Positions 734 to 51,025 of a stretch of DNA of 64,000 bases are shown piece by piece. Below the pieces are notes generated by a model. The model was not told where the DNA came from and ran no database searches. It saw only the letters and a list, made by a program, of their open reading frames with translations. The DNA comes from Viridothelium virens (Eukaryota > Ascomycota > Dothideomycetes > Trypetheliales > Trypetheliaceae). The position numbers were made by a program, and so were the translations under genes. The stretch lies in contig ML991785.1 of assembly GCA_010094025.1 (NCBI GenBank), forward strand, positions 1-64,000, read 5' to 3'. The stretch's first letter is position 1; the number at the start of each line of letters is the position of its first letter.

Positions 734-2781
734 ATGGAATTTCATAACGTGCAGAAGCAATGGGAACCGGAGGAACCGAGATATCTCGAGTTTCCTTGCC
801 TACCTGTAGGCGCTGTCCGTGATGGAAAGCCAGCGTTGAATAGGTTTTCTTCAACTCTTACCAAAGATCATGACTACCCTGCAGCTCAAGCAAGTCCCTT
901 TTTTTCTACTTCCTCCATCATCGGTTAATGTTGTTCCAGGCCATGCTTTATGCCGCGGGTGTTCCAGATGAAAGGTCCATGAAGAAGGCTCCGCATGTTG
1001 GTATAGCATCTGTCTGGTGGGAAGGCAATCCATGCAAGTAAGCACGCTTTTTCGAGTCAAGACAAAATCAAATGGGTACTAATAAAACGCCGAAGTACGC
1101 ACTGTCAGTTCACCACTAAATAGAGAAACTCGCAGCAGACATCCAACAGGCGTCTCCTGATACTGACGAACGTAGTGCTTGAACTTGGAAAGACCGTCAA
1201 AGACGCTGTCATGAAGCAAGACATGCTCGCATGGCAATATAACACCATTGGCGTCTCGGATGCCATTACCATGGGCAACGAAGGTATGCCCACATGACTA
1301 AAACTCGAAACAGAGGGGAATGTTGAGACCTACTAGGCATGCGATTCTCCCTGCAAACCCGCGAAATAATAGCAGACAGTATAGAAACCACAACAAGTGC
1401 GCAATATCATGACGCCTGCGTGGCCATTCCCGGCTGTGACAAAAATATGCCAGGCTGCATAATGGGCTTCGCTCGTCACAACCGACCATCGTGCATGGTC
1501 TATGGCGGCACAATCATGCCGGGCTACAGCAACCTCCTTCGCAAGCCTATCAACATCGCAACCGCCCTCGAAGCCCACGGCGCCTATCTCTTCGACACCC
1601 TCGCCAACCCTGACAACCCGTCTCAAAGCAAGGACGATCTACTCGTGGACATTGAAAGGCATGCCTGCCCCGGCGCCGGAGCCTGCGGCGGCATGTACAC
1701 TGCCAACACGATGGCGGCCGCAATCGAAGCACTTGGTCTCAGCCTCCCTGGCTCGAGCAGCACCCCAGCTACTTCACCCGCCAAGATGCGCGAGTGTGCC
1801 AAAGTCGCGGAAGCGATTCGGACATGCATGGAGCAGAATATTCTCCCCCGGGACCTGTTGACAAAACGCTCCTTCGAGAACGCCATGGTGATGATGATGG
1901 CCCTCGGTGGGTCTACGAACGGCGTCCTGCACCTTCTAGCCATGGCGGGCACTGCGGGCGTCGCCCTCACCCTCGACGACTTTCAGCGCGTTAGTCGTAA
2001 AATACCCTTCATCGCCAACTTAGCGCCCAGCGGGAAGTATTATATGGCGGATCTCTACGAGATTGGAGGTGTGCCGTCCGTAATGAAATTACTCGTGGCG
2101 GCGGAGTTGCTCGATGGCGGTATCCCGACCGTGATGGGCAAGACGCTGGCCGAGAACATCGAGACCTGGCCGTCGTTGCCGCAGGGAAACGAAATCATTC
2201 GGAATCTAGACAATCCCATCAAGAAAACAGGCCATATTGAGATTCTGCGCGGGAATCTAGCGCCGGGGGGTTCGGTGGCGAAGATCACGGGAAAGGAGGG
2301 CCTGAGATTCACCGGCGAGGCGCGCGTCTTCGACAAAGAGCACCAGCTCAGTGCCGCACTGAATGCGGGCCGCATTCCACGAAATCAGAATCTCGTTCTC
2401 ATCGTTCGGTATGAAGGCCCTAAAGGCGGCCCAGGCATGCCAGAGCAGTTGAAGGCCTCGGCCGTGATCATGGGCGCAAAATTGACCAATGTTGCGCTCG
2501 TAACGGATGGTCGGTATTCAGGGGCAAGCCACGGTTTCATCGTTGGACATGTGGTTCCGGAAGCAGCTGTGGGAGGGCCCATCGCGGTGGTAAAGGACGG
2601 AGATGTCGTGACAATTGATGCAGAGAATAATCGGATTGATATGGGTGTCTCCGATGAAGAAGTTGAAGAGAGACTGAAGCAGTGGAAGCGGCCGAAGAGG
2701 ATGGTAACAAGAGGCACTTTGGCCAAATATGAAGCGTTGGTCGGCGACGCAAGCCACGGAGCGATGACGGATTTGTTTTAA
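734..2781 (+). CDS. Dihydroxy-acid dehydratase (IlvD/Edd family)
   Basis: Fe-S dehydratase of the branched-chain amino-acid pathway (dihydroxy-acid to 2-keto-acid), or a close paralogue. Modelled exons are 734-889, 940-1037, 1150-1283 and 1337-2781, giving 610 residues, the usual length. Cluster cysteines expected for the family are present: GNPC at residue 84, GCDKNMPG at 163 and PGAGACGG at 246. The active-site region [10 protein letters not shown] and the C-terminal end [12 protein letters not shown] are also present. The first intron is GC-AG (GCAAGT donor at 890); it alone keeps the frame [11 protein letters not shown]. The third exon gives [10 protein letters not shown] directly after GNPC, where relatives usually have Asn and a shorter link, so this junction is the least certain part. 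The N-terminus is acidic and does not look like a mitochondrial presequence, so this may be a non-mitochondrial paralogue. No biosynthetic gene cluster is visible beside it. Confidence 0.9.
890..939 (+). other. GC-AG intron of the dehydratase gene
   Basis: Fifty bases from GCAAGTCC to TTGTTCCAG. The GC donor has the strong flanking consensus AAGT expected of GC-AG introns, and removal joins codons in phase 0. The nearby GT (two bases further on) would break the frame. Confidence 0.8.
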
Positions 2782-24180: not shown

Positions 24181-25498
24181 ATGCGGCTCATCAAACAAAG
24201 TATTCTACAACGAGATGGATCCGGAAGTGCAACCCTGCTGCCGGAAGACCCAGAAGATATGGTAGATACCCTACGCCAGACACACGAGCGGTCATCGCTA
24301 ATCTGCCCAGTAGTGGCACCTCTACAACCTCATCCGGCCCAACGATTTGCTCAGGGCGAGTGCCATTCGCCGCATCACTAACGAAACTGCGACTGGTTCC
24401 ACAGCATCTCGACGCGTCACCCTCAACCTCCTGATCCGAGTCAAGTCCACCGACTTCGACGCACAGGCTTCACAGTTGCACGTTTCGGGGCAGGTTGCAG
24501 AAGAGAACCAGTATGTGAAGTTGGGTGGCCATCACACTCTTGACCTTGAACTTCACAGAAATTTGACGTTGGAGAAAGCGGAGGGGTGGGATAGTGTTGC
24601 TTTGGGAATATTACAGGATGCGCTTGATCAGACGAAGAAGGCGGAAATGTTCGCAGTAGTAATGCAGGAGGGTCTGGCAAATATATGCTTGATTACAGAG
24701 CACCAAACAGTGTTGAAGACAACGGTAGAAACTAAGATGCCAGGCAAGAGGTCCAATTTACGTGGAGAGCATGATAAGGTACATTCGAGAGCCATAGGGA
24801 TTTCCTTTGAAGGTCGTCGCGGCTAAAGCATGCCTTTTAAGGCCCAGGAGAAGTTCTTCCGCACCACCCTCGACACTTTACTCCGGCAAATCGACCTCTC
24901 CGATCCCAAACCTCTCCTCCTTGTCTCACCGGGTTTCACAGCGTCCAGTTTCCAAGCCTTCATCAAGCAAACTGCCACTCAAGCCAACGATAAGCCTCTC
25001 CGCAATTTCCTCCCTCAGATCCTTACGGCACACGCTTCGAGCGGACATCTGCACTCACTCAACGAAGCGCTGGCATCGCAGGCAGTCAAGGCTCGGCTCA
25101 AGGACACCAAATACATGCGCGAGACAGCGCTTATGGATAAGTTGATGGAATTGATTCGCAAAGATGACGGGAGGGCGTGGTACGGACATAGGGAAGTTAC
25201 TAAAGCTGTCGAGAAGGGCGCTGTGGGGAGGGGAGGCGGAGTCCTGCTGATCAGTAATGCTTTGTTTCGTAGCCATGATATGGACACGAGAAGAAAGTGG
25301 GTGGGCTTAGTGGATAAGGTGAGAGACGTGGAGGGCGGCGAGGTAAGAATCTTTAGCTCGGAGCATGAGAGCGGGAAAAGATTAGAGGGATTAGGGAACG
25401 TGGCCGCGATTTTGACGTTTCCGTTGCTGAATTTGGAAGAGGACGACGATGAGGGTGGCGGCGGGGGACTCGAGAAAGGTACAAACGGAGTCAATTGA
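24181..25498 (+). CDS. DOM34: Dom34/Pelota, no-go mRNA decay factor
   Basis: eRF1-related factor that, with Hbs1, enters the empty A site of stalled ribosomes and promotes their dissociation. Exons 24181-24261, 24314-24778 and 24842-25498 give 400 residues, close to the family length; introns of 52 and 63 bases are GT-AG and phase 0. The N-terminus MRLIKQSILQRDGSGSATLL, WHLYNLIRPNDLLRASAIRR and the central QEKFFRTTLDTLLRQIDLSD are typical, as is the C-terminal eRF1_3 domain (GGGVLLISNALFR to NVAAILTFPLLNLE). There is no GGQ peptide-release motif, as expected for Dom34. The tail is acidic and Gly-rich (EEDDDEGGGGG). Divergence in this tail is common. Confidence 0.95.
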
Positions 25499-25934
25499 TG
25501 GGAATAAATGTGCGGAAATGATACCCAAACAGTAGACAATCTTCAAATCAGGAGAAACGTATTAGAAAATAAAAGAAAACTGAATGTATGGTTATTGGTG
25601 TTTGAATGTCCGCTGGTCAAGCACTCTCATACCATGCCTACCGTAAGATCTGCTTCGGAAAAATGGAAACCCAGCCGAGTACCTAATATATTTTACGTCA
25701 CTACTCCGTACAGACGTGAGTTGGATTTCCACAGTACCTTAAGCATTAAGAAACTGTTGCATTGATTCCAATTTGCCCAGTCCTTCGTGTAACTTGATCC
25801 GACGTCTAATTTATTGAGCACGTCTCGAAAAGAAGCTCTGTGCGGGTACGACGACTTTATTTACATCAACATTTCTCCGACGCATTCGATACTAGAGACC
25901 AAAAGTAAAGAATTCCAGCCCGTTGCAAGCGACA
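25499..25934. other. Intergenic spacer before the permease leader
   Basis: Separates the Dom34 stop from the riboswitch-bearing leader. It presumably holds the permease promoter. No TATA box or gene seen. Confidence 0.5.
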
Positions 25935-25982
25935 ATGAAGCCCATTCGTCTAGGAATATCAATCGATCAAGGTATAGATTGA
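25935..25982 (+). other. Upstream ORF in the permease leader
   Basis: A short ORF starting ATG AAG CCC that, in unspliced leader RNA, ends after 15 codons at TGA. If the candidate leader intron 25972-26179 is removed, the frame instead runs on past the permease start (26183) in a different frame. Such an arrangement would let splicing set translation of the permease. Its use is inferred. Confidence 0.35.
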
Positions 25983-26179
25983 GAACTGCATGTAACCGGT
26001 GTTCGCTCTTTCCTGTATTGCTATTCACCCAATCCTTCGTGCCTCCCATGAAAGGATATGGAAATGGTGTACGACTGAGCGTTCTGAGATCATACGGTTG
26101 AACTTGATCTGGATAATTCCAGCGAAAGGACTCATGCATCTCTGCCCGCCGCTATAAAATCATCGACTGACTATATCAG
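25972..26179 (+). other. Candidate 5'-leader intron enclosing the riboswitch
   Basis: Donor GTATAG at 25972, branch-like CTGAC at 26166-26170 and acceptor ATATCAG ending at 26179, four bases before the permease ATG. The whole TPP aptamer lies inside. Known fungal TPP riboswitches sit in introns and act through splice-site choice, so this fits, but other donors are possible. Confidence 0.5.
25987..26138 (+). promoter_or_regulatory. TPP (thiamine pyrophosphate) riboswitch
   Basis: The conserved THI-box core is present: CTGAGA at 26084-26089 and TGATCTGGATAATTCCAGCG at 26105-26124. Helices can be drawn by hand: P1 TGCATG (25987-25992) with CATGCA (26133-26138); P2 AACCG (25994-25998) with CGGTT (26095-26099); P3 CGCTC (26004-26008) with GAGCG (26077-26081), enclosing a long insert as in other fungal versions; P4 CTT (26103-26105) with AAG (26126-26128); P5 CTGG (26109-26112) with CCAG (26119-26122). 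It lies 45 bases upstream of the NCS1 permease start and on its strand. Known fungal TPP riboswitches control thiamine genes such as NMT1 and THI4 by alternative splicing. Here it predicts repression of the permease when thiamine is plentiful. Confidence 0.9.
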
Positions 26180-26182
26180 GGA

Positions 26183-27897
26183 ATGTCAAAAATGGATGTG
26201 GAAAAGGGACGTGTGGATCTCTCGTCAGACCACCAGCATGTTACCGATTCTCGTCCACTCGACTCTGGCCACCATTATGAACCGCCTCAACGACCTGTGT
26301 CGAGTTTCAGACAATGCCTTCAGCGGCTTGAAGGTCAAATGGTGGCCTACAATCTCGAAACCCGCGGTATCAAGCGAGTAGAAGCCGAGGAACGACACGA
26401 TCTCAAATCTCTGGGCTACGCACAAGTCGCTATCCTTTGGTTCTCCGTCAATCTTGCCGCGAACAATATCACTCTTGGCATGCTTGGGCCTGCAGTATAC
26501 TACCTCAGCTTCCGTGATGCTGCCCTTTGCGCCGTTTTTGGCGTCATTCTTGTATGTTCACCTTCCCATCTGTTCCAGGATATCTTAGACCCATTCTTCC
26601 ACCTTTCCATTCCTGTGAATATTCTTTAACTTTTCTCATTAGGGCTGTCTTCCCGTAGCCGCTATTGCGACCTTCGGCCCTATTTCCGGAAACCGGACCA
26701 TGATTCTGACGCGCTATACCATGGGCTATTACCCGAGCAAACTCATCGTCATCCTTGAACTGATCACCCTCCTCGGTTATGCCCTCATCGATACCGTCGT
26801 CGCTGGACAGATCTTGTCTGCTGTCTCTCCCTCTTCTCACCCTCTCACGATCGTCGTCGGCATAGTCATCGTCGCTATTGTAACCTGGGCCATCACCACT
26901 TTCGGGTATTCCATATTCCACTACTACGAGCGCTATGCGTGGGCCCCCCAATTGGTCGTTCTTTGCATCCTTGCTGGCGTGGCGGGGCCATCCTTCGACC
27001 TCACGACTCCAAGCCAGGGTTCGAACGCTGCTACCATCGCTGGCGACCGCCTCAGCTTCTTCAGCCTCTGCTTCAGCGCCGCCGTGACCTACGCCGGTGG
27101 TGCAGCAGACTACTTCGTCTACTACCCCTCTCACACGCCTCGCCTCCCCATCTTCGCAGTCACTCTCCTGGGCCTCACCCTCTCCTTCACCTTTGCCCTC
27201 ATCCTCGGCATCGGCCTCGCGTCGGGGCTGCCCAACCACGCTGCTTGGAACTCCGCGTACGGCGTCTCACAGGGCGCCCTCATCGTCGAGGCCTATCAGC
27301 CCCTCGGCGCGTTCGGTAGCTTCTGCGGCGTCGTGGTCGCGTTGGGCTTGGTCGCGAACCTGATCCCCACGACGTACAGCTCCGGCGTGGACTTTCAGGT
27401 CCTCGGCAGAGTGTTTGCACGCGTGCCACGCGTGGTGTGGAATACAGTCGGAGTCGTCATTTACACGGTATGTGCCGCGGTGGGGCGCGATCACTTGGCC
27501 CAAATCTTTACCAATTTCCTGGCGCTCATGGGGTACTGGGTCTCGATCTGGTTTGCGATCTGCGTGGAGGAGGTCCTCATCTTCAGACGGCGGAGGGGCT
27601 TTGATTGGGAGGCGTGGGCGGAGAAGAAAAAGCATCCTCTGGGCGTTGCAGCATTGATTGCATTTTTAATAGGCTGGGTGGGCGCGATTTTGTGTATGGC
27701 GCAAGTATGGTATATTGGGCCGATTGCGAAGTTGGTGGGAGATTATGGCGCTGATGTGAGTCTTGCGTTCTTGCTGACGAGGGTGGAGAGTTCTTTACTG
27801 ACGCTCGATTTAGATGGGAAATTACGTCGGCTTTGCGTGGGCGGCGCTCGTCTTTCCGCCATTGAGATGGCTTGAAGTAAGGAAGTTTGGCCGTTAG
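26183..27897 (+). CDS. NCS1-family permease, probable thiamine or thiamine-pyrimidine transporter
   Basis: Plasma-membrane nucleobase-cation symporter 1 family, nearest in feel to purine-cytosine permeases (Fcy2/Tpn1 group). Exons 26183-26551, 26643-27755 and 27814-27897 give 521 residues; introns of 91 and 58 bases are GT-AG and phase 0. A hydrophilic N-terminus of about 75 residues is followed by WFSVNLAANNITLGMLGPA (first helix), ISGNRTMILTRYTMGYYPSK and about eleven further hydrophobic segments. The last 28 residues come from the third exon and start MGNYVGFAWAALVFPPLRW. The family carries purines, cytosine, allantoin, vitamin B6 or thiamine; the TPP riboswitch in the leader points to thiamine or its aminopyrimidine (HMP). 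Bacterial CytX, also NCS1, is a riboswitch-linked HMP transporter. The next gene, convergent with a 452-base gap, carries a TenA domain. Substrate remains inferred. Confidence 0.92.
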
Positions 27898-28349: not shown

Positions 28350-29620
28350 CTACGACCCGCTCCCACCTTCAGCAACTCTTCCTCCGTCCTCGCCATCCCT
28401 CTCCTCACCCATACCATCCACCACCGGCCAAAACCTCTCCTCCAACCACAACACCTGCGCAAACTGCTCCTCGCTCCTCATCTGCACCTCGCGAACCTTC
28501 GTGTTCTCTGCCCCAGCCAGCTCATCCACCATCGCGCGACACGCATCGACGAACTTGCCAAAGGCGGGGGTGGTCCAGTTGGGGATGAGGGCGTGATGCA
28601 GCGCGAGGATGTGGTTCTCGGTGGAGGGCGCGGGCGGGGGCAGCGAGTTGCCGAAGCTGGCGGCGTAGCTCCAGGCGCTGCGGTAGCAGTGCTCCGTCGC
28701 CCACAGCACGACCATGCCCTCGAGCAGCGTCGCGCTGGTGCTGCCCACGGCGGCGAAAAGGTCGAGGTAGGCGCGGCAGATGGGGTTCGGTGGGGTGGTG
28801 GCGGCGGTGTCGCTGTGTAGGTCGAGGCTGTACTTGGTCGCAGTGATCTCGAAGAAGGACATCTCGCGCCGGATGTTGTTCAGGGCGGAGATTAGGAGGT
28901 CCATGGTGCGGTAGAGCACGTGGAATTGCGAGTTGGCGGTGAAGGGGAGGCGGACTTTGGCGATGAGGGAGCCGATGAAGGAGACGTAGCCGCGAGCGTA
29001 GTGTGAGTCTTGGATGAGCCATTGGGAGAGGGCGTTGCTAGAGAGGGTACCGCAACCGGCGTGGGAGAGAAAGGGTTGCTGGGTGGCCGACGTGAAGGCG
29101 TCGTTGTACTTGGAGAGCAGGTGCTTGGTGAGGGAAGGCATGTTGACACGAGGAATGGATTGAGGAGGGATCGGGGAAGAAGAAGCTGCTAAGGCTTGAT
29201 CGGATTTTCTCTTGAAGCCATTCGGCCCTCGTCGTTGAATTTGGAGATTCGGATTCGGCCTCGTGCCATTGTATATTTCAGAGCCTCCATGATTGGTGGT
29301 GCTGCCATTGACCACATCGCCATTTGTTTCGGACTGGCCTGCTTCTTGGGCCGCGGAGGAATTGAGGTATTCTTTACATGATTGGAGGTGTTCAATCTGG
29401 CGGGTCGTGTTCTTGGCGCGTACGAAGCCGCAATAGGTGCATCGAACTTTGCTGCACTGGGGAAAAGGCCGTCAACAGCATAGAATTGATGGAGGAACCA
29501 AGGGACGGTATGGTTGTGTGTTGAGAAGGAGTAAAAGGAGTGTGGTACCTTTGCGGAAGTATCGTCGTCGCTGAACTCGACGAAAGCTCGCCGAATGTCT
29601 GGATTGGCCTGGCGCCCCAT
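28350..29620 (-). CDS. TenA/THI-4 domain protein with N-terminal BED-like zinc finger
   Basis: Exons 29620-29549 and 29456-28350 (minus) give 392 residues; the 92-base GT-AG intron has a strong TTTTCCCCAG acceptor and is phase 0. Residues 30-51 carry a C-x2-C-x13-H-x3-C finger (Cys30, Cys33, His47, Cys51; VRCTYCGFVRAKNT then HLQSC), resembling BED fingers. A Ser/Asn-rich linker runs to about 129. From residue 130 (MPSLTKHLLSKYNDAF) to about 365 the sequence is TenA/THI-4-like and all-helical, with LSQWLIQDSHYARGYVSFIG near its start. TenA enzymes hydrolyse thiamine or amino-HMP in thiamine salvage, but some fungal members have no proven activity. A shorter product starting at the internal ATG 29141 would be TenA alone. 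The gene converges on the TPP-controlled permease. The finger suggests a nuclear or regulatory role, or a fusion with a domesticated transposase finger. Confidence 0.85.
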
Positions 29621-32229: not shown

Positions 32230-35200
32230 CTACAATGCAAACAAGTTACTGATCTTCAGCCCTTGACTAACAAAATGATATCTTCTCTTCACTCCCACCG
32301 CTTTTGCCCTCCCCAGCATCTCCCACGTCTCGTCTCCTCCGCCCACCATTACCATACTTAACGGATGTGGACGCGGCATCCCCGCAGGAGTCTTCTGCAT
32401 CTTATCCAACAACGGCCTCACTAGCCCTTCCTCCCCAAACCCATCGTCTCGCCCGTCTCTCCCGCCCGCATATCCACTCCCCATCCGCATGCCCATCGGC
32501 TCGTCCTGCTGCTCCGAATACGAGACCACGACAACCAGCTGCAGTGCCGACGCCCCCGGTGGGAATGATGGGACATTCTGCAGCTTGTCGCTGAAGCTGC
32601 AGCCTCCGCGCTTTACGACTAGGACCTGGTGGCTTCTCACTACGGACGCTGGTAGTGGGGATTCGCAAAGCGTATCGGTGACGTAGATGCTGTTCCAATC
32701 GAGATCGAGGTCTCCGGTGGAGTCTGGAACATTGGGAAGAGGCGCAGCGCCAGGGCCGACTGGAAGGATGGCCGGGAGCAGAGATCGGATGACGGGGAGA
32801 GATTGAGAAGTAGGAAGGGAAGATGCGGACGCGGAGGCGGAGGAGGATGAAGAAAGTGAGGCGGAGGCGGAGGCATTAGAGTCGAGATCAGAATCGGAGA
32901 ATAGTGATTTCATGTCGGAGAGACCTCGGAGAAGGCTACTCATAAGATTGGAGCCGTCCACCTTGGCATCGTTGGAATGTGCGTTTGTGAAGAGCTGGGA
33001 CGCGAATTGGAGGATAGACTGTTCTACTGTGCCATCCGCATTGACAGCTTTGCCGAGATCTTTCTCGTTGATGGGGAGGTCGAGAACGAGGTCTAACATC
33101 TCAGTGTCTCGGATCTTGCTGAAGTGCGGGTCGATGGGATTGAAACCGTTGATGGAGCTTTCTGAAAGGAAGACTTTTTCATCCCGCCCTAAAGCGACAT
33201 TGGAGACGGCGTAGACGCGGAAAAATTCATCTGGTACAGGTTGGCCAGGGAATCTCGGGGTTGGTTCCCGAACCATGCCGAGGCGCAAACCGCTGACAGA
33301 GTTGATGAGGATACCTTCGGAGCTGCGTTGAAGCACAGCAGCATTCATTACCATATTCGGTAGAGTTGGGAAGGAGAGGTCGAATGTATTTCGTGAAGTC
33401 AGCTTCGAGCTCGTGGCATTGGCTGGGATGAGCTCGGGAGGTAGAGTCCAGGGATAATACGTATAGTTCGTGGGAGACACGAGATCAGGCTGGGATACGC
33501 TTGGATGATCATTTGTAAATTCTAGAATCGGAGATTCTGCTACGCCGATCTTTGGCATCAGGTGCAGGCGAACCAGACTAGCCGCATGGAAGATATCCTG
33601 CCTAGCAGCCGTAGCAGATATGCTTAGTGGAAGCATAGGTGGAGGTAAAGGACATACTGCTTGCGACACTGAACTAGGAATGGTGGGAATTGCTACCACA
33701 TCGGTCGTGTTGACTTTCGTCGGTGTGGCAGTGTGTTGTGGTTTCCGTCGGAACGATTTCGGGAGGATCAAAGGATGACCTTCGGTAGAAAAGACAAAAG
33801 GTTCATCAAGATGATTGAGAGGATGCGCTTCGTCGTATAGCAAGTGAAGATATTTCACAGTCTCGCCGAGGAAGAAACTTTCCATGCGATCGCTTTGTTG
33901 ACCACTGCGTACGTCCTGGAGACCAGCCCATCCACACCGCGTCCAGCAACGCCGCTTGAGGTCGCGCATCACCATTTCAGCAACATGCAGGTACCAAGGA
34001 TCCTTAGTCGCGCGGTAGATGTACCAGGTGGACTCAATGAACTCAGGTCGACCTGGCCACCAGGTAAGACCATGCTCAATATTGCCGGTCGCCGTAGACC
34101 ATCGTTCCGGAAGCGAAGAAAATCTTGTCCAAAGCGCAGAATATACTAGATGGGCCTCAATGGCTTCCTCCAATTCACCAGAAAAGGCAAGTAGACCAGG
34201 ATAAAAAGCTGCAAGACTATCAAGCCAAAATGCTCGCATTGCTCCAGTGTGAAGATCGACCTGGATGTAATGCGGATGGTGGAATGAATGACCACGATAG
34301 ATGTGTCGTTTGATTGAGGCATGGACCTCTTGCCAAGCTGCACCAAAGGCTTCGGGTGAATCAATGCTGTAGTTGGTGGCGTCAAAGGAAATGCCCGAGA
34401 GGAGAATTTGAGACTTGAAGGCATATTCAAAGAAACTGTCTATTCCAGCACCAATGCCAGTGACTGGCGATATCCACTGTCCAGTTTCGGGGTCAATAGA
34501 ACTTCCAATTAGGCCGGCACGACTACGCCTTTCCCAGATTGCCCAAAAAGCTCGCTTTGCTAATCTCTCGAAGCGATCGTCGCCAGTCAATCTGCTCAGT
34601 GTAGTGAATTCAAGGACAAGACTTCCAGCGCCAGCAGCGCACGATTCAGTACTATCGGCAGGCCCTTTCTCGCCTACGAGGCACTGACCATGCTCGGCGT
34701 CAGTATTCAGAGGAGAGTTCTCGTAGAACGGAATTCCACGGCGCAGATTCACCCGTGGGTAGGGTATGCCGGTTGGAGTTGAGAAGGCTGGCAACAGTCG
34801 AGTGGCAAGGTCTAGAGCAAGTCTGAGTAGCTGACCGTCATAGATAATACCATTTTTCCAGAAGATACCCCATCTACCATCTTTTTCCTGTTCTGTAGGG
34901 TCATATCCCTTGATTGGTAGTTCACCGATGGCGAAGAGATGAGCGCTCAATAAGCCTCCAACTCCACGAATCGTCGTCTCGAACACCTGTACTTTACTAT
35001 CAACGTCAAAGCCCCGACCTCGTAGCCCTTGTCCACCTCGGTCCTTTTTGCCATCTCCGTAAAGGAGGATCAATGCTGCAATCGCATCTTGAAAATCTTG
35101 TAACTCTCTATTGCGGCCGTCTTTGCTTGGTGATGGTGACGAGGCTAGGATAGCAAGCGTGGAAAGGGTATCTATCAGAGTGACAGAATAGTTTCCAAGT

Positions 35201-35488
35201 GGATCATTGAGCTCCACATGAGCGGGATTGGAGTCATTACGAGTCAATGGCTTGCACAGCAGTGGACGTAACTCGTCCTCGGGGAATGCGTACTTCATGT
35301 AGCCGTTATATCCATGATAGAAAATGTCTCGTGTCTCTTGTCTATGCTAACAGTAAGCACATGCCCGCTTGCGAAAGAGGGCAAGGGATTCATATGAACC
35401 TTAGACTTGCAATTGCGTCGTCGCTCATGCAAGATGCAGCGGTTGCAAAGAGAATCACAAATAGAAAATCGACCCATCTTGCGTACAT
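32230..35488 (-). CDS. MNL1: ER degradation-enhancing alpha-mannosidase-like protein (GH47, Htm1/Mnl1)
   Basis: ER enzyme or lectin that trims mannose from misfolded glycoproteins to mark them for ER-associated degradation. Exons 35488-35400 and 35341-32230 (minus) give 1066 residues; the 58-base intron is GT-AG. The N-terminus MYARWVDFLFVILFATAA is a signal peptide. The GH47 domain (about 30-520) begins RQETRDIFYHGYNGYMKYAF and includes DPLGNYSVTLIDTLSTLAIL, ELPIKGYDP, GAGSLVLEFTTLSRLTGD, GIGAGIDSFFEYAFKS and MESFFLGETVKYLHLLYD. A Ser/Ala-rich low-complexity run lies at about 850-875. It is followed by a protease-associated-like region (VLVVKRGGCSFSDKLQNV), as in yeast-type Htm1/EDEM3 proteins. 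It shares a 394-base divergent promoter with TIM50. Confidence 0.93.
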
Positions 35489-37953: not shown

Positions 37954-39800
37954 GGAACTAAGGAGAGGGAAGGGGGCAGGAATCTGTAACGCATATATCG
38001 GGTCTGGCAATACCTTCTCCTACTTTGGCCCAGATTTCGGCTGCGAGCATATCATTGTGATATCAATCATGTAGCGTTGGAAGCGTTGGGGACCTTTTAG
38101 TTAGCGGTCCCCGAATCTCCGCCCTGTATATTCTATCTACTACCATATCTACGACATATCTTAGTGACCCGAATATGCCTTGCTCATATGAACAATAATG
38201 TTTCGTGGCAAACGTGCGAGATCGTGTCGGCGTTCGCCAAGTATGCACAATGGGAAATGTCAGCTATGCACACTGGGCCTCAAGCACCGGGTAAACCTTG
38301 TGCATGGTCCATAACTGAACACTGAAGGACCCCTTTGACTTGCATGAAGTTGAAAATACCAACCACTGTGAAAATCAGCCAGTCTTCTGAGCAACAAGAC
38401 ATCTTATTTCACCGCCTATTATGGAGCATGTTCAGTCCACCGAGTTGTGTGATAGTGAAGAAGCGCTATAGATTGGCGACTTGGGCCGAGCCGGGGGGGA
38501 CGTGCCGTCGATTTAGGATATGGGGTCAGCTTTGCTGACTGCATTAACATCAGCCTATAGACCGGTGACCAGTTTCATCCGCTATGGCTCATTTCACTCA
38601 TTTGGCTCATCGGCTAGGGGTATGATTGAACAAGGGGCTGGACCCGCTGCTCTATGTGCATGTCACATGGACAATCAACAAGTACATGTACGAGAACGGC
38701 ACGTCCACAATTGAAGCCAGGTCGTGCAGTGTCTGCTTACAGAGGAGTCTTCCAATGGTGCAATGTCTGATTCGTCTGCATTGTGCAGGAAGAAATGGGC
38801 GTTTGAGGAAGACGGGAAGGATGTCGACAAGGGCAGGAACTTGGTCTCTCACAGATGTAGAAAGGATTCCCGTGATACCCATTGCCTCGTTTGCACGGGC
38901 GGCGACTCTCAGGCTTGGCGGCTAAGCAGAATTCAGGCCTTGTTCAGGCCTCGTTCAGGCCTCGTTCAGGTCTCGTTCATCAGGGAGGCTGACGCTAGAA
39001 CAAAAGAAGGCTATTTTTAGCCGAGCGATCAGGACCTTGACGCCTTTACGTCGGTCTACGGCGTGGTAGCGCATAGCGGGGCGTGGAGGTGATTAGGTGA
39101 CTACTCGCGTTTCTGCTGTACACAGGAGTACGCTGCGTACGGCTGAAGACCAGACGATTCCCCCATCCCCCACCACCCTTCCTGCAAGCGGACCGTAGCG
39201 TAAATGCGACGCTTGGTGATTTGGTCAAGCCTTGTATCCTCGACCTCTTTCGAGCCCCTTTGAATGCATCAGGTGCGTTGCATCCGCCAGGGTGTTCGGG
39301 CTCTCCCGCTGACGATGGCGGTACAAAGTACTTATCATCTCAACAGATTTTCATCCCACGGACACGGCGAGCCTTTGACACATGTGTGAGAGAACCTGCC
39401 ACTAGGACCAGTCGTCTCAATGCAAGACTGATCCCAATCCAAGACTCTGTGCCCTTCTTACCTGCGCGCTTTCTACAACCTTCGTACTCACCAACACCTG
39501 TCCAAGGTTTACGCCGGAGGTGACTACCGTTTGGGCACAAGCCCCGGCGTCTGGCGTGCGTGCAACCTTGGAGTGAAACATTTGGCTTCGCGAGATGCTA
39601 TTGACAAGATACTATGCTACACGTAATGGGAAGACATGCTGAAGAGATACAAGCACCGATTGCTGCGAAATTCTCCTGAACAAACACCCCAATACCTCGA
39701 TACCTACCCCGTCGACCTGCGTCCATGATCGGTAAGCGATAACGCATATCATCTCTCAGGAGATAGCGCCGGTCAGATTGGTAGGAATCTGGCATCGAGA
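37954..39800. other. Intergenic region with a minisatellite
   Basis: No gene supported. The one clear structure is the 11-base tandem repeat at 38932-38975. Bases nearest 39800 are the promoter and leader of the CaaX-box protein gene. Confidence 0.5.
38932..38975. repeat. 11-base minisatellite, 4 copies
   Basis: Unit TTCAGGCCTCG repeated four times in direct tandem; copy 1 ends TTG instead of TCG and copy 4 has T for C in the middle. Copies 2 and 3 are identical, which suggests recent slippage or expansion. Confidence 0.85.
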
Positions 39801-42497
39801 ATGTCAGATACTGGATATTCGGCGGATAATGACGACTTGTACGGAGATGGGGACTCTGCGCCGGGGGGACGGACGCCCGTTGGCGGCTTGCAACAAAATG
39901 GACATCTCAAAGAGCAGGACAGACCACTATTGCCAGTCACTCGACCGCCTGCAATCGTCGTTCGCCTTATCACTGGCACTTCCTCAAAGATAGCATTGCC
40001 ACTAGGTGAAGCGCTTGTGATGTCCACCTCCGCCAGGGGACGTTACATTACCGCGTTCAACTCTGGCTACCTTCATATCATTGACGTCCGTTCGCTACCG
40101 GACAAGAAGGTCAGAGCATTTGAGGTTTCAAGAAGACCAGTTGCAGCGGATATTCATGATGATGGAACACTCATGGCCGTGCTATCAACCAAGCATGTCG
40201 TCAATGTCTACGATATCAAGATCGGCCCTGCCCCGAGATTGGTAAGGACAATCCAGTTAGAGCTTCCTGCTGAAGCAGTCACATTGGATAGAACGGGGCA
40301 TCTGCTCGCAGTCTGCGGGCCAAATAGCGTCGACGTATACTCGCTTCACCCTGACGCTGGAGACGCGACTCGGCGATGTGCTACTGCTGGCCTTGAATTG
40401 GATCATGTCGAATTCTCGCACAACTCCAAATGGCTACTGGCGACGACCAAGAACATCAGCAGAGGCACTCTTGTCGTCTCCGTCCCACTATTTGCGGAAG
40501 ACCCACGCCATCCCACTGCGGAAGAACTTCGACAGGTCTGGACGGCTGAAATGCTTGAGCCAAAGCTCAGCAGCAAGCTACAATCAGCATGCTTATGGCA
40601 GCATGATGGTATGGTCGAGGTTGTTGGTACCGTTGACGCTTCCACGAATCTTGTAGTTGCAACAGCTCCCGAAGATAATTTAACAACGATCGCTCGTTGC
40701 AAATTGGAAAAGACGTCAAAACTTCGGGAACTGGGCATTCGGGACTTTCCAGTCGTCACAACAACACAGGATGGGCAGCTCATTGCCAGTCTGACCAACA
40801 GAATCTGCGTGCGAGTGCTGCAGATACCTAACAATATTGCTGCATCTGACATCAAAGTGAACATTGAAGAGACCTATGACATTCCGGAAATGGACGAGAA
40901 CACCACTCCAGGCCTCAAATTTGTGCAAGACAAAGCCTCACGACGACTGCTCATTCTCAGTCCTGCAATACCGGACATCTCAAGGTTCTGTAATGTCGAC
41001 GAGAGTTTCTCGGACGATGAAGACACTGCCGAGGGAGGCCGGTTTATCGTACTAGATTTTGACAAATCTAGTCAGCCAGGTCTCGAAGACGAGCATGTGA
41101 CCCTCGTACTTGACACTGGTAATGCAAGGGTATTGCCCGAACAGCAGCTAGACTTGAAGACTGAAGTGGCGTTGGAACGACGAAGAACGCTCACGCAGAA
41201 AAAGCATCAGTCTCTACCCACAATCTCATCCCCTCGCCGATCTCATACTTCTGGCGACGTTCGCCGCCGATCTCATCATCACCATAATCGCAACCATGTA
41301 CCAAGCTCTGCTCCTCCTGTCCCGGCTCTCCCTGATGATGACCTCCCCATCGAGGCTATGGAAGAGCCATACACGCCTTCGCAACCACGATCGCGCGCCT
41401 CCCTCGTCCGAGCCGCCTCTGTCTCACAGTCTTCACCTTACGTGCGTCAACGTCTGCGCGCGCGCCCTACGGCACCTGTTGAGTATAGACGGGCAGATGG
41501 TTCAGACCGACGGCTTGCACGGGACCCACCACATGAGAGTGATGCGGATAATTGGGTACCACCGCCACCCATGTATACTGCTGAGCCAAACGCTCCTTTG
41601 CCACTCCGATATTGGGAGCTAGCTGGCCTCCGAGGCTCCGAAACAAGTTCACCGGCTCCGGGAGCATCAGAGGAAAATTTACGGCCCAGCTCAGCCACGG
41701 GTAGCTATGCCGCTCCTCGGACGCAACCACATGGCTTCTTGGGGATCCCACCTTTAGCAAGCGAAATGGGAACATGGAGCGGTAGGGTGGGAACGCAGCA
41801 GCAGATGAATCTCAATATGATCCGGCGGCGTCCCGTCCCTGGCGGCGTGGGAATTGGCAGAATGGACACGATACGCAGCATCAGCAGTCCCTCCAGCGGC
41901 GGCGCCAGTGCGCCCATTGTAGCGCGATCCAGCACTGCTCCCTCTGTCGTCCCGCTCGCTCTGGCTCCTCCCAACGCCGCTGTTCCCCCGGAACCCTCTA
42001 ATCCCTCCGCTTCTGCCAACCCCGCCAATCCTACCAACCCTTCCAGCCCTCCCGAACGCTCTTCGCCCACCCGAACAAGGGACACGCCCATCTCTCCCCA
42101 GACCCCCGCCACGATCCCTCACACGCCCATACAATCTCGCCAAACCCCACTACCCCAAGCTTCGCAACCCTCTCGCGCCCCTCGCACACCTTCCCACATC
42201 TCCACCGCCCGTCCGACTTTCCAGCCAACGACTCCGTATACCACCGCCTCCTGGGCGACCACTCCGTCGCCGAATCCGTCGCACCCGGCCGTGCGTCCCT
42301 TGACACCCTACGAGGAGACACGGGCACGGATACCGTCTCGTGCTCCGAGCCGAGCGAAGCGGAGCGCAGCGGCGAATGTGGCGGGGGCGAAGCGGAAGGG
42401 ACTGTTGGGATTGAAGGGTAGGAAGGGAAGGGAGGGCGTAGGTAGAGGTGGAGGTGGAAGTGGGGGTGGAGGAGGAGGGAAGTGTGTTGTTATGTGA
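39801..42497 (+). CDS. Beta-propeller-like protein with disordered tail and CaaX box
   Basis: Single exon, 898 residues. Residues about 60-440 look like WD40-type blades: GRYITAFNSGYLHIIDVRSL, DDGTLMAVLSTKHVVNVYDI, GHLLAVCGPNSVDVYSLH and HNSKWLLATTKN. Fungal relatives exist with a similar N-terminal propeller, but I know no function. Residues about 470-850 are Pro/Ser/Thr/Arg-rich and disordered, with many SP and TP pairs that could be phosphorylated. The C-terminus is basic and Gly-rich (KRKGLLGLKGRKGREG, then a GGGG run) and ends CVVM. That fits a CaaX prenylation box with a polybasic second signal, so the protein is probably farnesylated and held at a membrane. The prenylation is inferred; the rest is directly visible. 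Confidence 0.85.
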   Translation: MSDTGYSADNDDLYGDGDSAPGGRTPVGGLQQNGHLKEQDRPLLPVTRPPAIVVRLITGTSSKIALPLGEALVMSTSARGRYITAFNSGYLHIIDVRSLPDKKVRAFEVSRRPVAADIHDDGTLMAVLSTKHVVNVYDIKIGPAPRLVRTIQLELPAEAVTLDRTGHLLAVCGPNSVDVYSLHPDAGDATRRCATAGLELDHVEFSHNSKWLLATTKNISRGTLVVSVPLFAEDPRHPTAEELRQVWTAEMLEPKLSSKLQSACLWQHDGMVEVVGTVDASTNLVVATAPEDNLTTIARCKLEKTSKLRELGIRDFPVVTTTQDGQLIASLTNRICVRVLQIPNNIAASDIKVNIEETYDIPEMDENTTPGLKFVQDKASRRLLILSPAIPDISRFCNVDESFSDDEDTAEGGRFIVLDFDKSSQPGLEDEHVTLVLDTGNARVLPEQQLDLKTEVALERRRTLTQKKHQSLPTISSPRRSHTSGDVRRRSHHHHNRNHVPSSAPPVPALPDDDLPIEAMEEPYTPSQPRSRASLVRAASVSQSSPYVRQRLRARPTAPVEYRRADGSDRRLARDPPHESDADNWVPPPPMYTAEPNAPLPLRYWELAGLRGSETSSPAPGASEENLRPSSATGSYAAPRTQPHGFLGIPPLASEMGTWSGRVGTQQQMNLNMIRRRPVPGGVGIGRMDTIRSISSPSSGGASAPIVARSSTAPSVVPLALAPPNAAVPPEPSNPSASANPANPTNPSSPPERSSPTRTRDTPISPQTPATIPHTPIQSRQTPLPQASQPSRAPRTPSHISTARPTFQPTTPYTTASWATTPSPNPSHPAVRPLTPYEETRARIPSRAPSRAKRSAAANVAGAKRKGLLGLKGRKGREGVGRGGGGSGGGGGGKCVVM

Positions 42498-48256: not shown

Positions 48257-49572
48257 CTAGAATATCTTACTAGGTCGATTGCCCGGGTCCTTTGGAAAGA
48301 GACCAGCAGCTGTTAAGTTCTGTAAATGCCACTCCGGAGCAGATTCAGTCTTCCAAGTCCACCAGATCCATCCTGCCGCTTTCTCATAAGCATCGAGTTG
48401 CGCGGCAATAAAAGTTTGGATGTTGTCCTTGTCGACTTGCAACATGCCATCGACGGTGCCTACAGATTTGGCTGCACAGTCACCAATGTAGTATGAACCG
48501 CTGCCAAGCTTGTAACTTCCATCGTATCGAGCTCCGATGCCGTAGCCATTGAGGTATTTAGCGCAGTCGGTCATGGCGCCAGTCCATTCACCCGCAATGG
48601 TCCATTTATTATTAGTAGCCATCTGACTACCAAAACTGCAAGCTGTTGAAGTATGCTCCGACGGGGACATGGCCAACGAGCCTGAGTCAAAAACTTCATA
48701 ATGATGAGTGTCTTCCAAAAGATTCCACATGCCAGCACCCCAGTTGTTCCAGCTGTTTACACCTTGGAACGCATCATGGAAGGTGATTGCGACATTGCTG
48801 TCTTGAAGGTTGCCCCACCCATCGTTGTAGAATTGGGTCACTTTGCCCATGTCCAGGTCAGAACCGAGAGGCTCATTCACCAACTCAATAGCAGCAAGAG
48901 CAGGGTGAGATGCATAGTCGTCGCGGATCTGGTTGAGAGCGTCCTTGGTGTTCGTGATGAAGCCGTCATTGCTTGTCCATAAGACGGAACCATTGTGGCC
49001 ACTGTTGTCAAAGCCGTTCTGCGAACCCTGAGCCCCATGAACGTCAACAAGGACCTTGAGACCATGGGTCTGAGCCCAATCAAGAGCTTTTCCAAAGCGG
49101 TCATAGGCACCCATGACATAAGGATCGCTAGGATCATTGGAATTGGGGATGGACCAGTAGCCGATAGGAATTCGGACATGGTTCAGATTGTTTGCAGCAA
49201 TTTGCGCAAAATCATCTTCAGTGATCCAGCTATCCCAGTGTTGCGAGAGGAGAGTTCCGGCGGCATCTTTCCCAAGATGGGAGGTGAGAGTCCATTCATC
49301 GACAACACCGCTCCCAGCGAACTGGTCGAAGATGGAGGGAGTAATCCATGCCTCAAGTACGAACCAACCTCCTAGGTTCACCCCGCGAACCTTTTCTGAG
49401 CCGTAGCCAAATTTCAGCGTATCATCACGTCTCCAAAAGGTTCTAGAAGACTCAATTAGATCAGGCTTAGTTTGAGGAGAGAATAAACTCGGACGACTCA
49501 CTGAGGTGCTGGAGCGGCGTTGGCCAACGCTGCAGAGAGCAAAAGAGTAGTAATGGTGCTGCGGAAATGCAT
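48257..49572 (-). CDS. Secreted glucan 1,3-beta-glucosidase (GH5 exo-glucanase)
   Basis: Releases glucose from the ends of beta-1,3-glucan; acts in wall remodelling or feeding. Exons 49572-49502 and 49442-48257 (minus) give 418 residues; the 59-base intron is GT-AG, and the two exons lie in different frames. The signal peptide is MHFRSTITTLLLSAALANA. GH5 landmarks: VNLGGWFVLEAWITPSIF, NHVRIPIGYW, VDVHGAQGSQNG, acid/base Glu214 in IELVNEPLG and nucleophile Glu309 in TIAGEWTGA. The Trp-rich GWIWWTWKTESAPEW near the end is conserved. Length is typical. Without the intron the N-terminus reads a long chance frame lacking an ATG. Confidence 0.94.
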
Positions 49573-51025
49573 AATGGCTACCGATAAGATGATTTAAGAA
49601 TGTGACACGAACTACTTGCAATATCCCACGCTCCAGGCAGGGCCATTCAATAGAAATGAATTGATGAGCTGGAGACACGGTGGAGAATGCTGCAAGCGCG
49701 TGTGATGGAATACGAACTATGTGGGACCTGCCTCTGTACTTAAAACAAGAGCTCACCAGCTCGTCGGAAAGAGCTCATGCAAGGACCAGCGTTAATCGTC
49801 ATTGCTGGAGGCACATGTTGCGAGGTGGATCTACAACATTCAGTAAGGCATGCACGTCCTGGCCTGTTGGCGCTTTGATCGTCTTGACATCGTGACCTTT
49901 TCCCCGCCGACTTTCGTAGGGCGACCAAAGGTCACAGAGACAAAAGTGACAGAGAAGTCCTTAGAGGCAGTGGCAAGCACCAATGAGGATTCGACGGTGA
50001 CGGCCGACTTTCTGAAAAGCTCCAACGGGCCACACGCTTGAAGCTGAGCATCCCTGGCGATAATGTGATTCAGGGACCAAGCTGGCGTCGTTGGCGCAGG
50101 CACCGCAAAAAGCATGCGTCATGATCCTTGCCGTCGGGCGTGCGGGATGGGCTTGGATAGGCTCACCAGGCTTGCAGACTGGAATCTTGGAATGAGCCAA
50201 CGAAGTTGTCGCGGTTGTTTCGTTTCTTACGCCGGTCGCTCTTTTTTGAGCAAGGCATGTGCACATCACCACCCCGGATATAACACCGTTCCGGCGGCCT
50301 GGCCGATTCAGTCTTTTCTTTTTCGGCATTGACTTTGGTAGAAGCTAGTAGCGTTCAGTGAAAAGCTGACGAATGCTTCACCCTTGATATGCTCTGGCTG
50401 GTGTGAAGTCGGTCAGTCTGACTTGACTCAGGTACGAAGCTCGTGAAGGCTCTGGGTGAAGGCTGCATGACGTCATGCGACTATTGCGTTTCCCTCTTGA
50501 TCCTGCTTGCTGAGGGAATGGCTTCGAAGTCATGAGGAGCATCTTGGACCATGCTTTGTTTTTGGATTCAAGCGAATGTTCGTCGTGAGCTACTGTAGGC
50601 AATGTGGTCAATGATGGTTGAGCGCTTGTGAGGAGTTGCCGACAAGCCAATCATTTGTGTTTGTCGTCTGCAGACAATGATCCCTCCCCAACCGGCCATC
50701 TCGGTGATCTCCACAAACGCAACTAGTAAAAGCTTGGCGTCTCCAAGATCCGAAGACTTATCCCGGCGACTTGCGGGGAAGATCTACCAAAACTTCGGAC
50801 AGCTCGTGTCTCACTCGCAGAAAGCCTTTCCTTTACTCTAGCGCTAGTAGATCATCTCGAGAGGTAGTGACCAATGAGACCATCACACATACATGCGATG
50901 AGATCAGCGTGGCTCGACATAGTAAATTCCCTACTGTTCCACGCACTATAGCTAATTTTCTGCATCATCACAACACCTGTGCTTGCCCGAGGCTAAGCGT
51001 GAGAGGTCATTTTGCAAGATGACCT

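What the first reader, a model, noticed from the sequence alone, without database searches (positions are those of the whole stretch)
25972..26183. TPP riboswitch in the leader of an NCS1 permease
The THI-box core CTGAGA and TGATCTGGATAATTCCAGCG is present with all five helices drawable by hand, including a 6-bp P1 and a 5-bp P2 formed by distant segments. The aptamer is on the gene's strand, 45 bases before the ATG. Known fungal examples control thiamine genes through splicing, so this permease is very likely part of thiamine homeostasis although its family is usually labelled purine-cytosine permease.
Basis: partly seen in the sequence, partly recalled or inferred. Interest (0 to 1): 0.85.

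Follow-up and report, generated by a model that had tools for sequence, protein, structure and literature searches.

The report
Fungal vitamin B1 switch before permease
The leader of a fungal membrane-transporter gene carries an RNA switch of the known vitamin B1-sensing kind, apparently wired to turn the transporter off by changing how the messenger is spliced; it is a new example of a known class, with hints about what the transporter carries.

Summary
A complete TPP aptamer lies at 25987-26138, + strand. Rfam RF00059 matches at 49.7 bits (E 9.7e-7), below its gathering score of 54.3; the model misses the true 5' half because the P3 arm is long, a reported failing for fungal aptamers (PMC11683625, passages).

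The aptamer sits inside a predicted leader intron ending three bases before the permease ATG. The exon side of the proximal 5' splice site (25942-25971|GT) is complementary to the aptamer's P4-P5 strand (-24.1 kcal/mol; 3 of 2000 shuffles as good); aptamer and blocked-site folds differ by 1.5 kcal/mol. Use of that site creates an overlapping upstream reading frame from 25935. This fits the published "Type I" (NMT1-like) design: TPP frees the site and shuts the permease off. The distal site is not fixed and longer folds give no support.

TPP switches before such permeases are known (TPPsw-NUC; AN4526.2 family): a new member of a known kind. New here: the adjacent gene is a TenA_E-like thiamin-salvage protein, suggesting a pyrimidine cargo. 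Function and conservation are untested.

The parts
25987..26138 (+). TPP riboswitch aptamer, P1 to P1' (152 nt, P3 element 78 nt)
   Evidence: RF00059 match 26053-26147, 49.7 bits; free MFE fold draws P1-P5
26004..26081 (+). extended P3 arm with inner hairpins
   Evidence: RNA fold
26084..26089 (+). CTGAGA, pyrimidine-binding junction motif (role recalled)
   Evidence: exact sequence; aligned to RF00059
26103..26130 (+). P4-P5-P4' segment, pyrophosphate-binding half (GCG at 26122-26124); alternative partner of the proximal 5' splice site
   Evidence: RF00059 alignment; duplex
25942..25971 (+). anti-aptamer: last 30 exon bases before the proximal 5' splice site, complementary to 26103-26129 (23 bp in the predicted duplex); 25965-25971 GATCAAG is a perfect 7-base complement of 26103-26109
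   Evidence: -24.1 kcal/mol, 3 of 2000 shuffles; 7-base match in 182 of 5000 shuffles
25972..25977 (+). candidate proximal 5' splice site S2, AAG|GTATAG
   Evidence: sequence; inferred
25716..25721 (+). candidate distal 5' splice site S1, GAC|GTGAGT (rivals at 25643 ACC|GTAAGA and 25789 CGT|GTAACT)
   Evidence: sequence; the same GTGAGT begins permease intron 2; inferred
26167..26179 (+). branch point CTGAC (26167-26171) and 3' splice site AG (26178-26179) of the leader intron, three bases before the ATG
   Evidence: sequence; inferred
25935..25971 (+). upstream ATG (25935) and the 5' part of a 45-codon overlapping upstream reading frame formed when S2 is spliced to 26180; no ATG starts at 25664-25934
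26183..27897 (+). NCS1-type permease, 521 aa, introns 26552-26642 and 27756-27813
   Evidence: gene model and PF02133
28350..29620 (-). convergent neighbour: TENA/THI-4 family protein, 392 aa, intron 29457-29548, TenA_E-like active-site residues
   Evidence: PF03070, PDB match 2f2g, alignment, gene model

Best explanation
It is a fungal TPP riboswitch of the splicing type (published Type I, NMT1-like) that represses an NCS1-type permease when TPP is plentiful. Shown by sequence or computed fold: the aptamer, the long P3, the splice-signal sequences, the upstream ATG and the complementarity. Inferred: with little TPP the P4-P5 strand pairs with the exon side of the proximal 5' splice site (25942-25971|GT) and hides it. 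The spliceosome then uses a distal 5' site and removes the ATG at 25935, so the permease is made. With TPP bound, P4-P5 is locked in the aptamer and the proximal site is free. The mRNA then keeps the ATG at 25935, whose frame runs across the permease start in another frame, and permease synthesis falls. Most likely cargo (inferred, weaker): thiamin or, given the TenA_E-like neighbour, its pyrimidine part (HMP, amino-HMP or formyl-amino-HMP).
For: RF00059 49.7 bits, E 9.7e-7; the only other match listed up to E 1 is glmS at E = 1. Free MFE fold equals the five-helix aptamer; P1+P2+P3 geometry in 8 of 5000 shuffles. In 25940-26179, probabilities are 0.81-0.88 (P1), 0.67-0.72 (P2), 0.88-0.99 (P3), 0.81-0.89 (P5). 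Duplex of the S2 flank with P4-P5 -24.1 kcal/mol: 3 of 2000 shuffled flanks, 2 of 829 other + strand and 2 of 819 - strand GTA/GTG[AC]G sites reach it. Aptamer -59.5 and blocked-site fold -58.0 kcal/mol for 25940-26179. CTGAC and AG three bases before the ATG. 45-codon overlapping frame from 25935 in the S2 form; no ATG over 25664-25934 where base-shuffled sequence averages 4.1 and 30 of 2000 have none. Type I layout and P4-P5 pairing beside the proximal 5' site described in PMC5882874 (section 5 part 1 and passages). Permease PF02133. TenA_E-like neighbour.
Against: Below the Rfam gathering score. The transcription start and S1 are not identified: three candidates, none with RNA evidence. If transcription starts before 25634, the S1 (25716) form would itself carry a 60-codon frame across the permease start, and in the 25643 form the ATG at 25606 does the same. 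Without a ligand term, P1 has probability 0.36-0.39 in the fold of 25716-26179, 0.50-0.55 in 25789-26179 and 0.00 in 25640-26200; the S2:P4 pairing has 0.09 in 25940-26179, 0.10 in 25789-26179, 0.04 in 25716-26179 and 0.00 in 25640-26200. A second CTTGATC at 25793-25799 pairs with the same S2 segment at 0.88-0.90 in 25716-26179, 0.28-0.34 in 25789-26179 and 0.00 in 25640-26200. A shorter S2 flank gave no significant duplex (317 of 2000 shuffles; 160 of 829 other sites as good); the longer flank was chosen after the constrained fold had suggested it. No comparative (covariation) evidence could be gathered. PMC8786325 (passages) raises the possibility that TPPsw-NUC elements have lost function.
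Confidence: 0.77

Rival explanations
1. A real TPP riboswitch that acts by another route: it controls whether the leader intron is spliced at all (retention leaves five ATGs at 25990-26134 before the permease) rather than choosing between two 5' sites.
For: Five further ATGs start between 25990 and 26134. S1 is not pinned down. The CTTGATC copy at 25793-25799 can pair with the S2 segment (0.88-0.90 in 25716-26179), which would hide S2 in either state. PMC5997356 saw little evidence of regulated second-site access in Candida DUR31 (passages).
Against: The long complementarity between the S2 flank and P4-P5 and the single ATG placed just before S2 fit site choice better.
Confidence: 0.15
2. A decayed TPP aptamer: the fold persists but no longer regulates the permease.
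For: Sub-gathering score; P2 AACCG/CGGTT departs from the GGGG/ACCC of the RF00059 consensus; PMC8786325 offers loss of function as a reading of TPPsw-NUC because of weaker conservation (passages).
Against: P1, P2, P3 and P5 perfectly paired, core exact, matching anti-aptamer, splice-signal sequences and upstream ATG present.
Confidence: 0.07
3. Chance resemblance to the thi box.
For: Gathering threshold not reached.
Against: E 9.7e-7 over 64 kb and 4227 families; five helices; position in the leader of a transporter class known to carry this switch.
Confidence: 0.01

Closest known systems
TPPsw-NUC: TPP riboswitches of fungal 'nucleoside transporter' genes (AN4526.2 family, Fcy21/Tpn1-like; PMC5997356, PMC5882874, PMC8786325, PMC11683625)
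   Same: TPP aptamer, long P3, purine-cytosine-permease-like transporter; Mukherjee et al. infer alternative splicing with a uORF or intronic stop
   Different: Orthology to AN4526.2 not testable here. The S2:P4-P5 pairing in this class and the TenA_E-like neighbour are not described in the passages that I read.
Neurospora crassa NMT1 riboswitch (Type I; as described in PMC5882874 and PMC5997356; the primary paper, Cheah 2007, was not read)
   Same: 5'UTR intron, two 5' sites around a uORF, P4-P5 pairing beside the proximal site, AG just before exon 1
   Different: Controls a permease, not HMP synthase; here the upstream frame overlaps the main start after splicing
N. crassa NCU01977 / DUR31 riboswitch (Type II)
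   Same: TPP switch on a transporter gene, long-distance pairing
   Different: There it lies in a coding-region intron and the pairing promotes the distal site through the P1' strand (PMC5882874); transporter is SSS/urea-type (PMC5997356)
Bacterial CytX and plant PLUTO (HMP carriers of the NCS1 family; family name recalled)
   Same: cytX of Neisseria has a TPP riboswitch and is described as the HMP importer (PMC7237195, passages); PLUTO, called CytX in bacteria, transports HMP (PMC11452348, passages)
   Different: The fungal protein matches the CytX model only as a remote relative (31.6 bits against cut-off 309.85)

Membership tests
TPP riboswitch (RF00059) | CTGAGA and TGATCTGGATAATNCCAGCG-type core | tested here: met
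   exact at 26084-26089 and 26105-26124
TPP riboswitch (RF00059) | five helices P1-P5 in the standard order | tested here: met
   free MFE fold; P1+P2+P3 geometry in 8 of 5000 shuffles. Not drawn in the fold of 25640-26200 (P1, P2 probability 0.00)
TPP riboswitch (RF00059) | Rfam gathering score (a curator's score cut-off, not a feature of the RNA) | tested here: not met
   49.7 against 54.3 bits; RF00059 is reported often to give incomplete fungal aptamers when P3 exceeds about 60 nt (PMC11683625, passages)
TPP riboswitch (RF00059) | binds TPP | not testable with these tools
   needs in-line probing or ITC
Fungal Type I splicing switch | aptamer in a 5'UTR intron whose AG lies just before exon 1 | tested here: met
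   predicted from sequence: CTGAC and AG at 26178-26179, ATG 26183; no RNA evidence
Fungal Type I splicing switch | two 5' splice sites, one on each side of a uORF | tested here: inconclusive
   proximal site and uORF start present; distal site is one of three candidates
Fungal Type I splicing switch | P4-P5 complementary to the region beside the proximal 5' site | tested here: met
   -24.1 kcal/mol, 3 of 2000 shuffles; flank length chosen after the fold; a shorter flank was not significant (317 of 2000)
NCS1 / purine-cytosine permease family | PF02133 above cut-off | tested here: met
   72.8 bits, cut-off 23.5
NCS1 / purine-cytosine permease family | NCBIfam ncs1 model TIGR00800 above its cut-off | tested here: not met
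   158.2 bits against 353.1 (protein with two residues swapped by typing); the library is made for bacteria and archaea
TPPsw-NUC / AN4526.2 family | orthology of the permease to AN4526.2 | not testable with these tools
   no fungal genomes or proteins of that family held
TenA_E | TENA domain, Glu aligned with A. thaliana Glu140 / P. furiosus Glu129, second Glu, no active-site Cys | tested here: met
   PF03070 35.1 bits, cut-off 22; D44, E149, E233 invariant in A1; counting along the chains puts the aligned Glu at 140 (2f2g) and 129 (1rtw); the Cys-Glu-Glu of 1rtw reads Ala-Thr-Glu here. That 2f2g is Arabidopsis and 1rtw P. furiosus is recalled. B. subtilis TenA with Cys135 was not aligned. 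NCBIfam salvage_TenA 16.2 of 130 bits
TenA_E | amidohydrolase activity on thiamin breakdown pyrimidines | not testable with these tools
   needs enzyme assay

The most novel reading that the evidence does not exclude
The riboswitch-controlled fungal permease and its TenA_E-like neighbour form a small salvage locus: the permease imports the thiamin pyrimidine moiety or its degradation products when TPP runs low, and the TenA_E protein remakes HMP from them. That would give the orphan TPPsw-NUC transporters a substrate and make them a third occasion (with bacterial CytX and plant PLUTO) on which the NCS1 family serves HMP uptake.
Probability: 0.33. Interest if true: 0.55.

Novelty: new member of a known kind. 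Interest (0 to 1): 0.36.

Why it matters
In the papers seen here the TPPsw-NUC transporters are putative, without a proven substrate (PMC5997356, PMC8786325, passages), and one suggests that their switches may have lost function. This locus gives a concrete, mutable expression platform (a 30-base anti-aptamer directly against a 5' splice site) and a linked salvage-enzyme gene, so that both questions, whether it switches and what it carries, can be tested in one gene.

Tried and rejected
Rfam at gathering on the whole window: no match. Relatives: an exact fungal-type core pattern found 0 viral contigs and 8 stretches in genome contigs of bacteria (by title; not read further). The permease found no relative in viral contigs: 6 stretches matched a pattern, none confirmed. 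phmmer of the permease against PDB gave 3 weak chains of unrelated name, best E 0.029. No genome is held for the window, so other TPP switches in this genome, the organism's name, orthologues and conservation of the permease-TenA pair could not be tested. Pfam was run on 20 of the 54 stop-to-stop frames of 150 codons or more, besides the permease.

A decayed second aptamer upstream was considered because 25764-25789 resembles part of P3 (19 of 25) and is followed by CTTGATC at 25793-25799. 10 of 500 shuffles reach the alignment score; left as unexplained.

A short S2 flank (-15 to +9) gave an unremarkable duplex: 317 of 2000 shuffles as good, 160 of 829 other + strand sites as good, and 5 of 31 GT sites in the leader scored better. 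The longer flank (-35 to +2) was tested after the constrained fold suggested it.

CytX as orthologue: rejected, far below its cut-off. Searching the genomes behind L001-L008 for CytX (2 of 8 with a match, 0 of 8 over cut-off) added nothing. Kyte-Doolittle counting of the permease gave 8 broad segments, fewer than the 12 helices recalled for NCS1 carriers, and was not used.

Full report
Setting. The window is eukaryotic and probably from a filamentous fungus (inferred from short introns and gene content; no genome is held for it). The permease gene on the + strand follows an eRF1/Dom34-like gene (24314-25498: eRF1 domain 1 and the start of domain 2 in one stop-to-stop frame, the rest of domain 2, below cut-off, and domain 3 in the next). 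It is convergent with a TENA/THI-4 gene on the - strand. Pfam was run on 20 of 54 frames of 150 codons or more.

The aptamer. RF00059 matches at 26053-26147 (+), 49.7 bits, E 9.7e-7; the only other match listed up to E 1 is glmS at E = 1. The alignment shows why: the model took a short local stretch at 26053 as the 5' half, with non-standard pairs. The better-paired 5' half lies at 25987-26008, beyond a 68-base P3 interior. PMC11683625 (passages) reports that RF00059 often gives incomplete fungal aptamers when P3 exceeds about 60 nt, with mean fungal P3 near 150 nt. The unconstrained minimum-energy fold of 25980-26150 equals the fold with P1, P2, P3 and P5 enforced. For 25986-26140 it is -45.6 kcal/mol, with 3 of 200 shuffles as low. 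With the 3' half fixed, 8 of 5000 shuffles of the upstream 297 bases hold a P1+P2+P3 5' half. In the 240-base context 25940-26179 the pair probabilities are 0.81-0.88 (P1), 0.67-0.72 (P2), 0.88-0.99 (P3) and 0.81-0.89 (P5).

The gene. Exons 26183-26551, 26643-27755 and 27814-27897 give 521 residues that match PF02133, Permease for cytosine/purines, uracil, thiamine, allantoin, E 3.2e-20. NCBIfam ncs1 and CytX models match below their cut-offs (158.2 of 353.1 and 31.6 of 309.85).

The expression platform. Before the ATG lies CTGAC, then AG at 26178-26179, which fits the usual fungal branch point and 3' splice site (recalled); permease intron 2 begins with GTGAGT and contains CTGAC. Inside the leader, AAG|GTATAG at 25972 is the last 5' site candidate upstream of the aptamer. 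Its exon side, 25942-25971, can form 23 base pairs with 26103-26129, that is P4-P5-P4': -24.1 kcal/mol, reached by 3 of 2000 dinucleotide shuffles of the flank and by 2 of 829 (+) and 2 of 819 (-) other GTA/GTG[AC]G sites. The last seven exon bases are an exact complement of 26103-26109; 182 of 5000 shuffles, 6 of 829 and 11 of 819 other sites have a complement that long. The pairing excludes P1 and P4-P5 of the aptamer; the two folds of 25940-26179 differ by 1.5 kcal/mol (-59.5 and -58.0), the blocked-site pairing having probability 0.09. This is the arrangement described for NMT1 and generalised as Type I (PMC5882874, section 5 part 1 and passages): S1, uORF, S2, aptamer, AG before exon 1.

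The upstream frame. If S2 is used, the ATG at 25935 (A at -3) opens a 45-codon frame that runs across the permease start in another frame. If a site further upstream is used, this ATG is removed. In unspliced RNA the same ATG gives 15 codons. The 271 bases 25664-25934 contain no ATG; base shuffles average 4.1 and 30 of 2000 have none, as if scanned leader were kept clear of starts.

What speaks against. The distal site is not fixed: GAC|GTGAGT at 25716, CGT|GTAACT at 25789 and ACC|GTAAGA at 25643 all qualify. Earlier ATGs (25606, 25634, 25663) would be in the S1 form if transcription starts before them; with S1 at 25716 the one at 25634 opens a 60-codon frame across the permease start. Folding longer stretches without ligand lowers the aptamer (P1 0.50-0.55 in 25789-26179, 0.36-0.39 in 25716-26179, 0.00 in 25640-26200) and does not favour the S2:P4-P5 pairing (0.10, 0.04 and 0.00). 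A second CTTGATC at 25793-25799 competes for the S2 segment (0.28-0.34, 0.88-0.90 and 0.00 in the same three stretches). Such folds ignore TPP, proteins and the order of transcription, but they are no support. The short-flank duplex test was negative, and the flank was chosen.

Known or new. PMC5997356 (passages) lists TPP switches in predicted nucleoside transporters similar to Tpn1 and Fcy21, including A. nidulans AN4526.2, and cites Moldovan et al. (not read) for more. PMC5882874 classes them as nucleoside transporters controlled by splicing in almost all cases. PMC11683625 counts 26 TPPsw-NUC among 378 sequences. PMC8786325 models the A. oryzae example and suggests loss of function as one reading (passages). 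The finding is therefore a new member of a known kind.

What may be new. The convergent neighbour (392 aa) has a TENA/THI-4 domain (PF03070, 35.1 bits, cut-off 22). Its best PDB match is 2f2g (E 4.4e-6), recalled as the Arabidopsis TENA_E protein. By alignment it keeps the Glu that counts as 140 in 2f2g and 129 in 1rtw, an Asp (D44) and a C-terminal Glu (E233), with Ala-Thr-Glu where 1rtw has Cys-Glu-Glu. PMC5635689 (passages) uses the Cys and Glu residues to define TENA_E and describes its amidohydrolase role in pyrimidine salvage. The N-terminal part has a CxxC...HxxxC pattern that Pfam does not name. The NCBIfam salvage TenA score is far below cut-off (16.2 of 130), so enzymatic identity is only likely. 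Bacterial cytX, an HMP importer, carries a TPP riboswitch in Neisseria (PMC7237195, passages), and plant PLUTO transports HMP (PMC11452348, passages); both are NCS1 carriers (recalled). Together these make HMP-type pyrimidines a better guess for the cargo than purines or cytosine. One locus cannot show that the neighbourhood is conserved. Three literature searches (4 of 4 papers listed, 12 of 19 listed, 2 of 2 listed) showed no paper that, by title and opening abstract, reports this pairing in fungi; I read passages of three of the papers listed.

Noticed in passing
28350-29620 (-): TENA/THI-4 (TenA_E-like) gene convergent with the riboswitch-controlled permease, with an N-terminal CxxC...HxxxC stretch that Pfam does not name.
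   Followed up: partly
25764-25799: Partial repeat of the aptamer's P3 segment (19 of 25 with 26017-26041) followed by a second copy of AACTTGATC (P4 5' strand), beside a candidate 5' splice site at 25789; possibly a decayed duplicate, a competing pairing element, or chance.
   Followed up: partly
24314-25498 (+): eRF1/Dom34-like gene (eRF1 domains 1, 2, 3) directly upstream of the permease leader.
   Followed up: no
1327-2781 (+): Dihydroxy-acid dehydratase-type gene (ILVD/EDD).
   Followed up: no
39754-39930 (+): Chance-level glmS ribozyme match (21 bits, E = 1), inside a long reading frame with DUF7165; probably nothing.
   Followed up: no
32230-35346 (-) and 48257-49774 (-): Glycosyl hydrolase family 47 frame of 1038 codons and a family 5 (cellulase-type) gene.
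   Followed up: no
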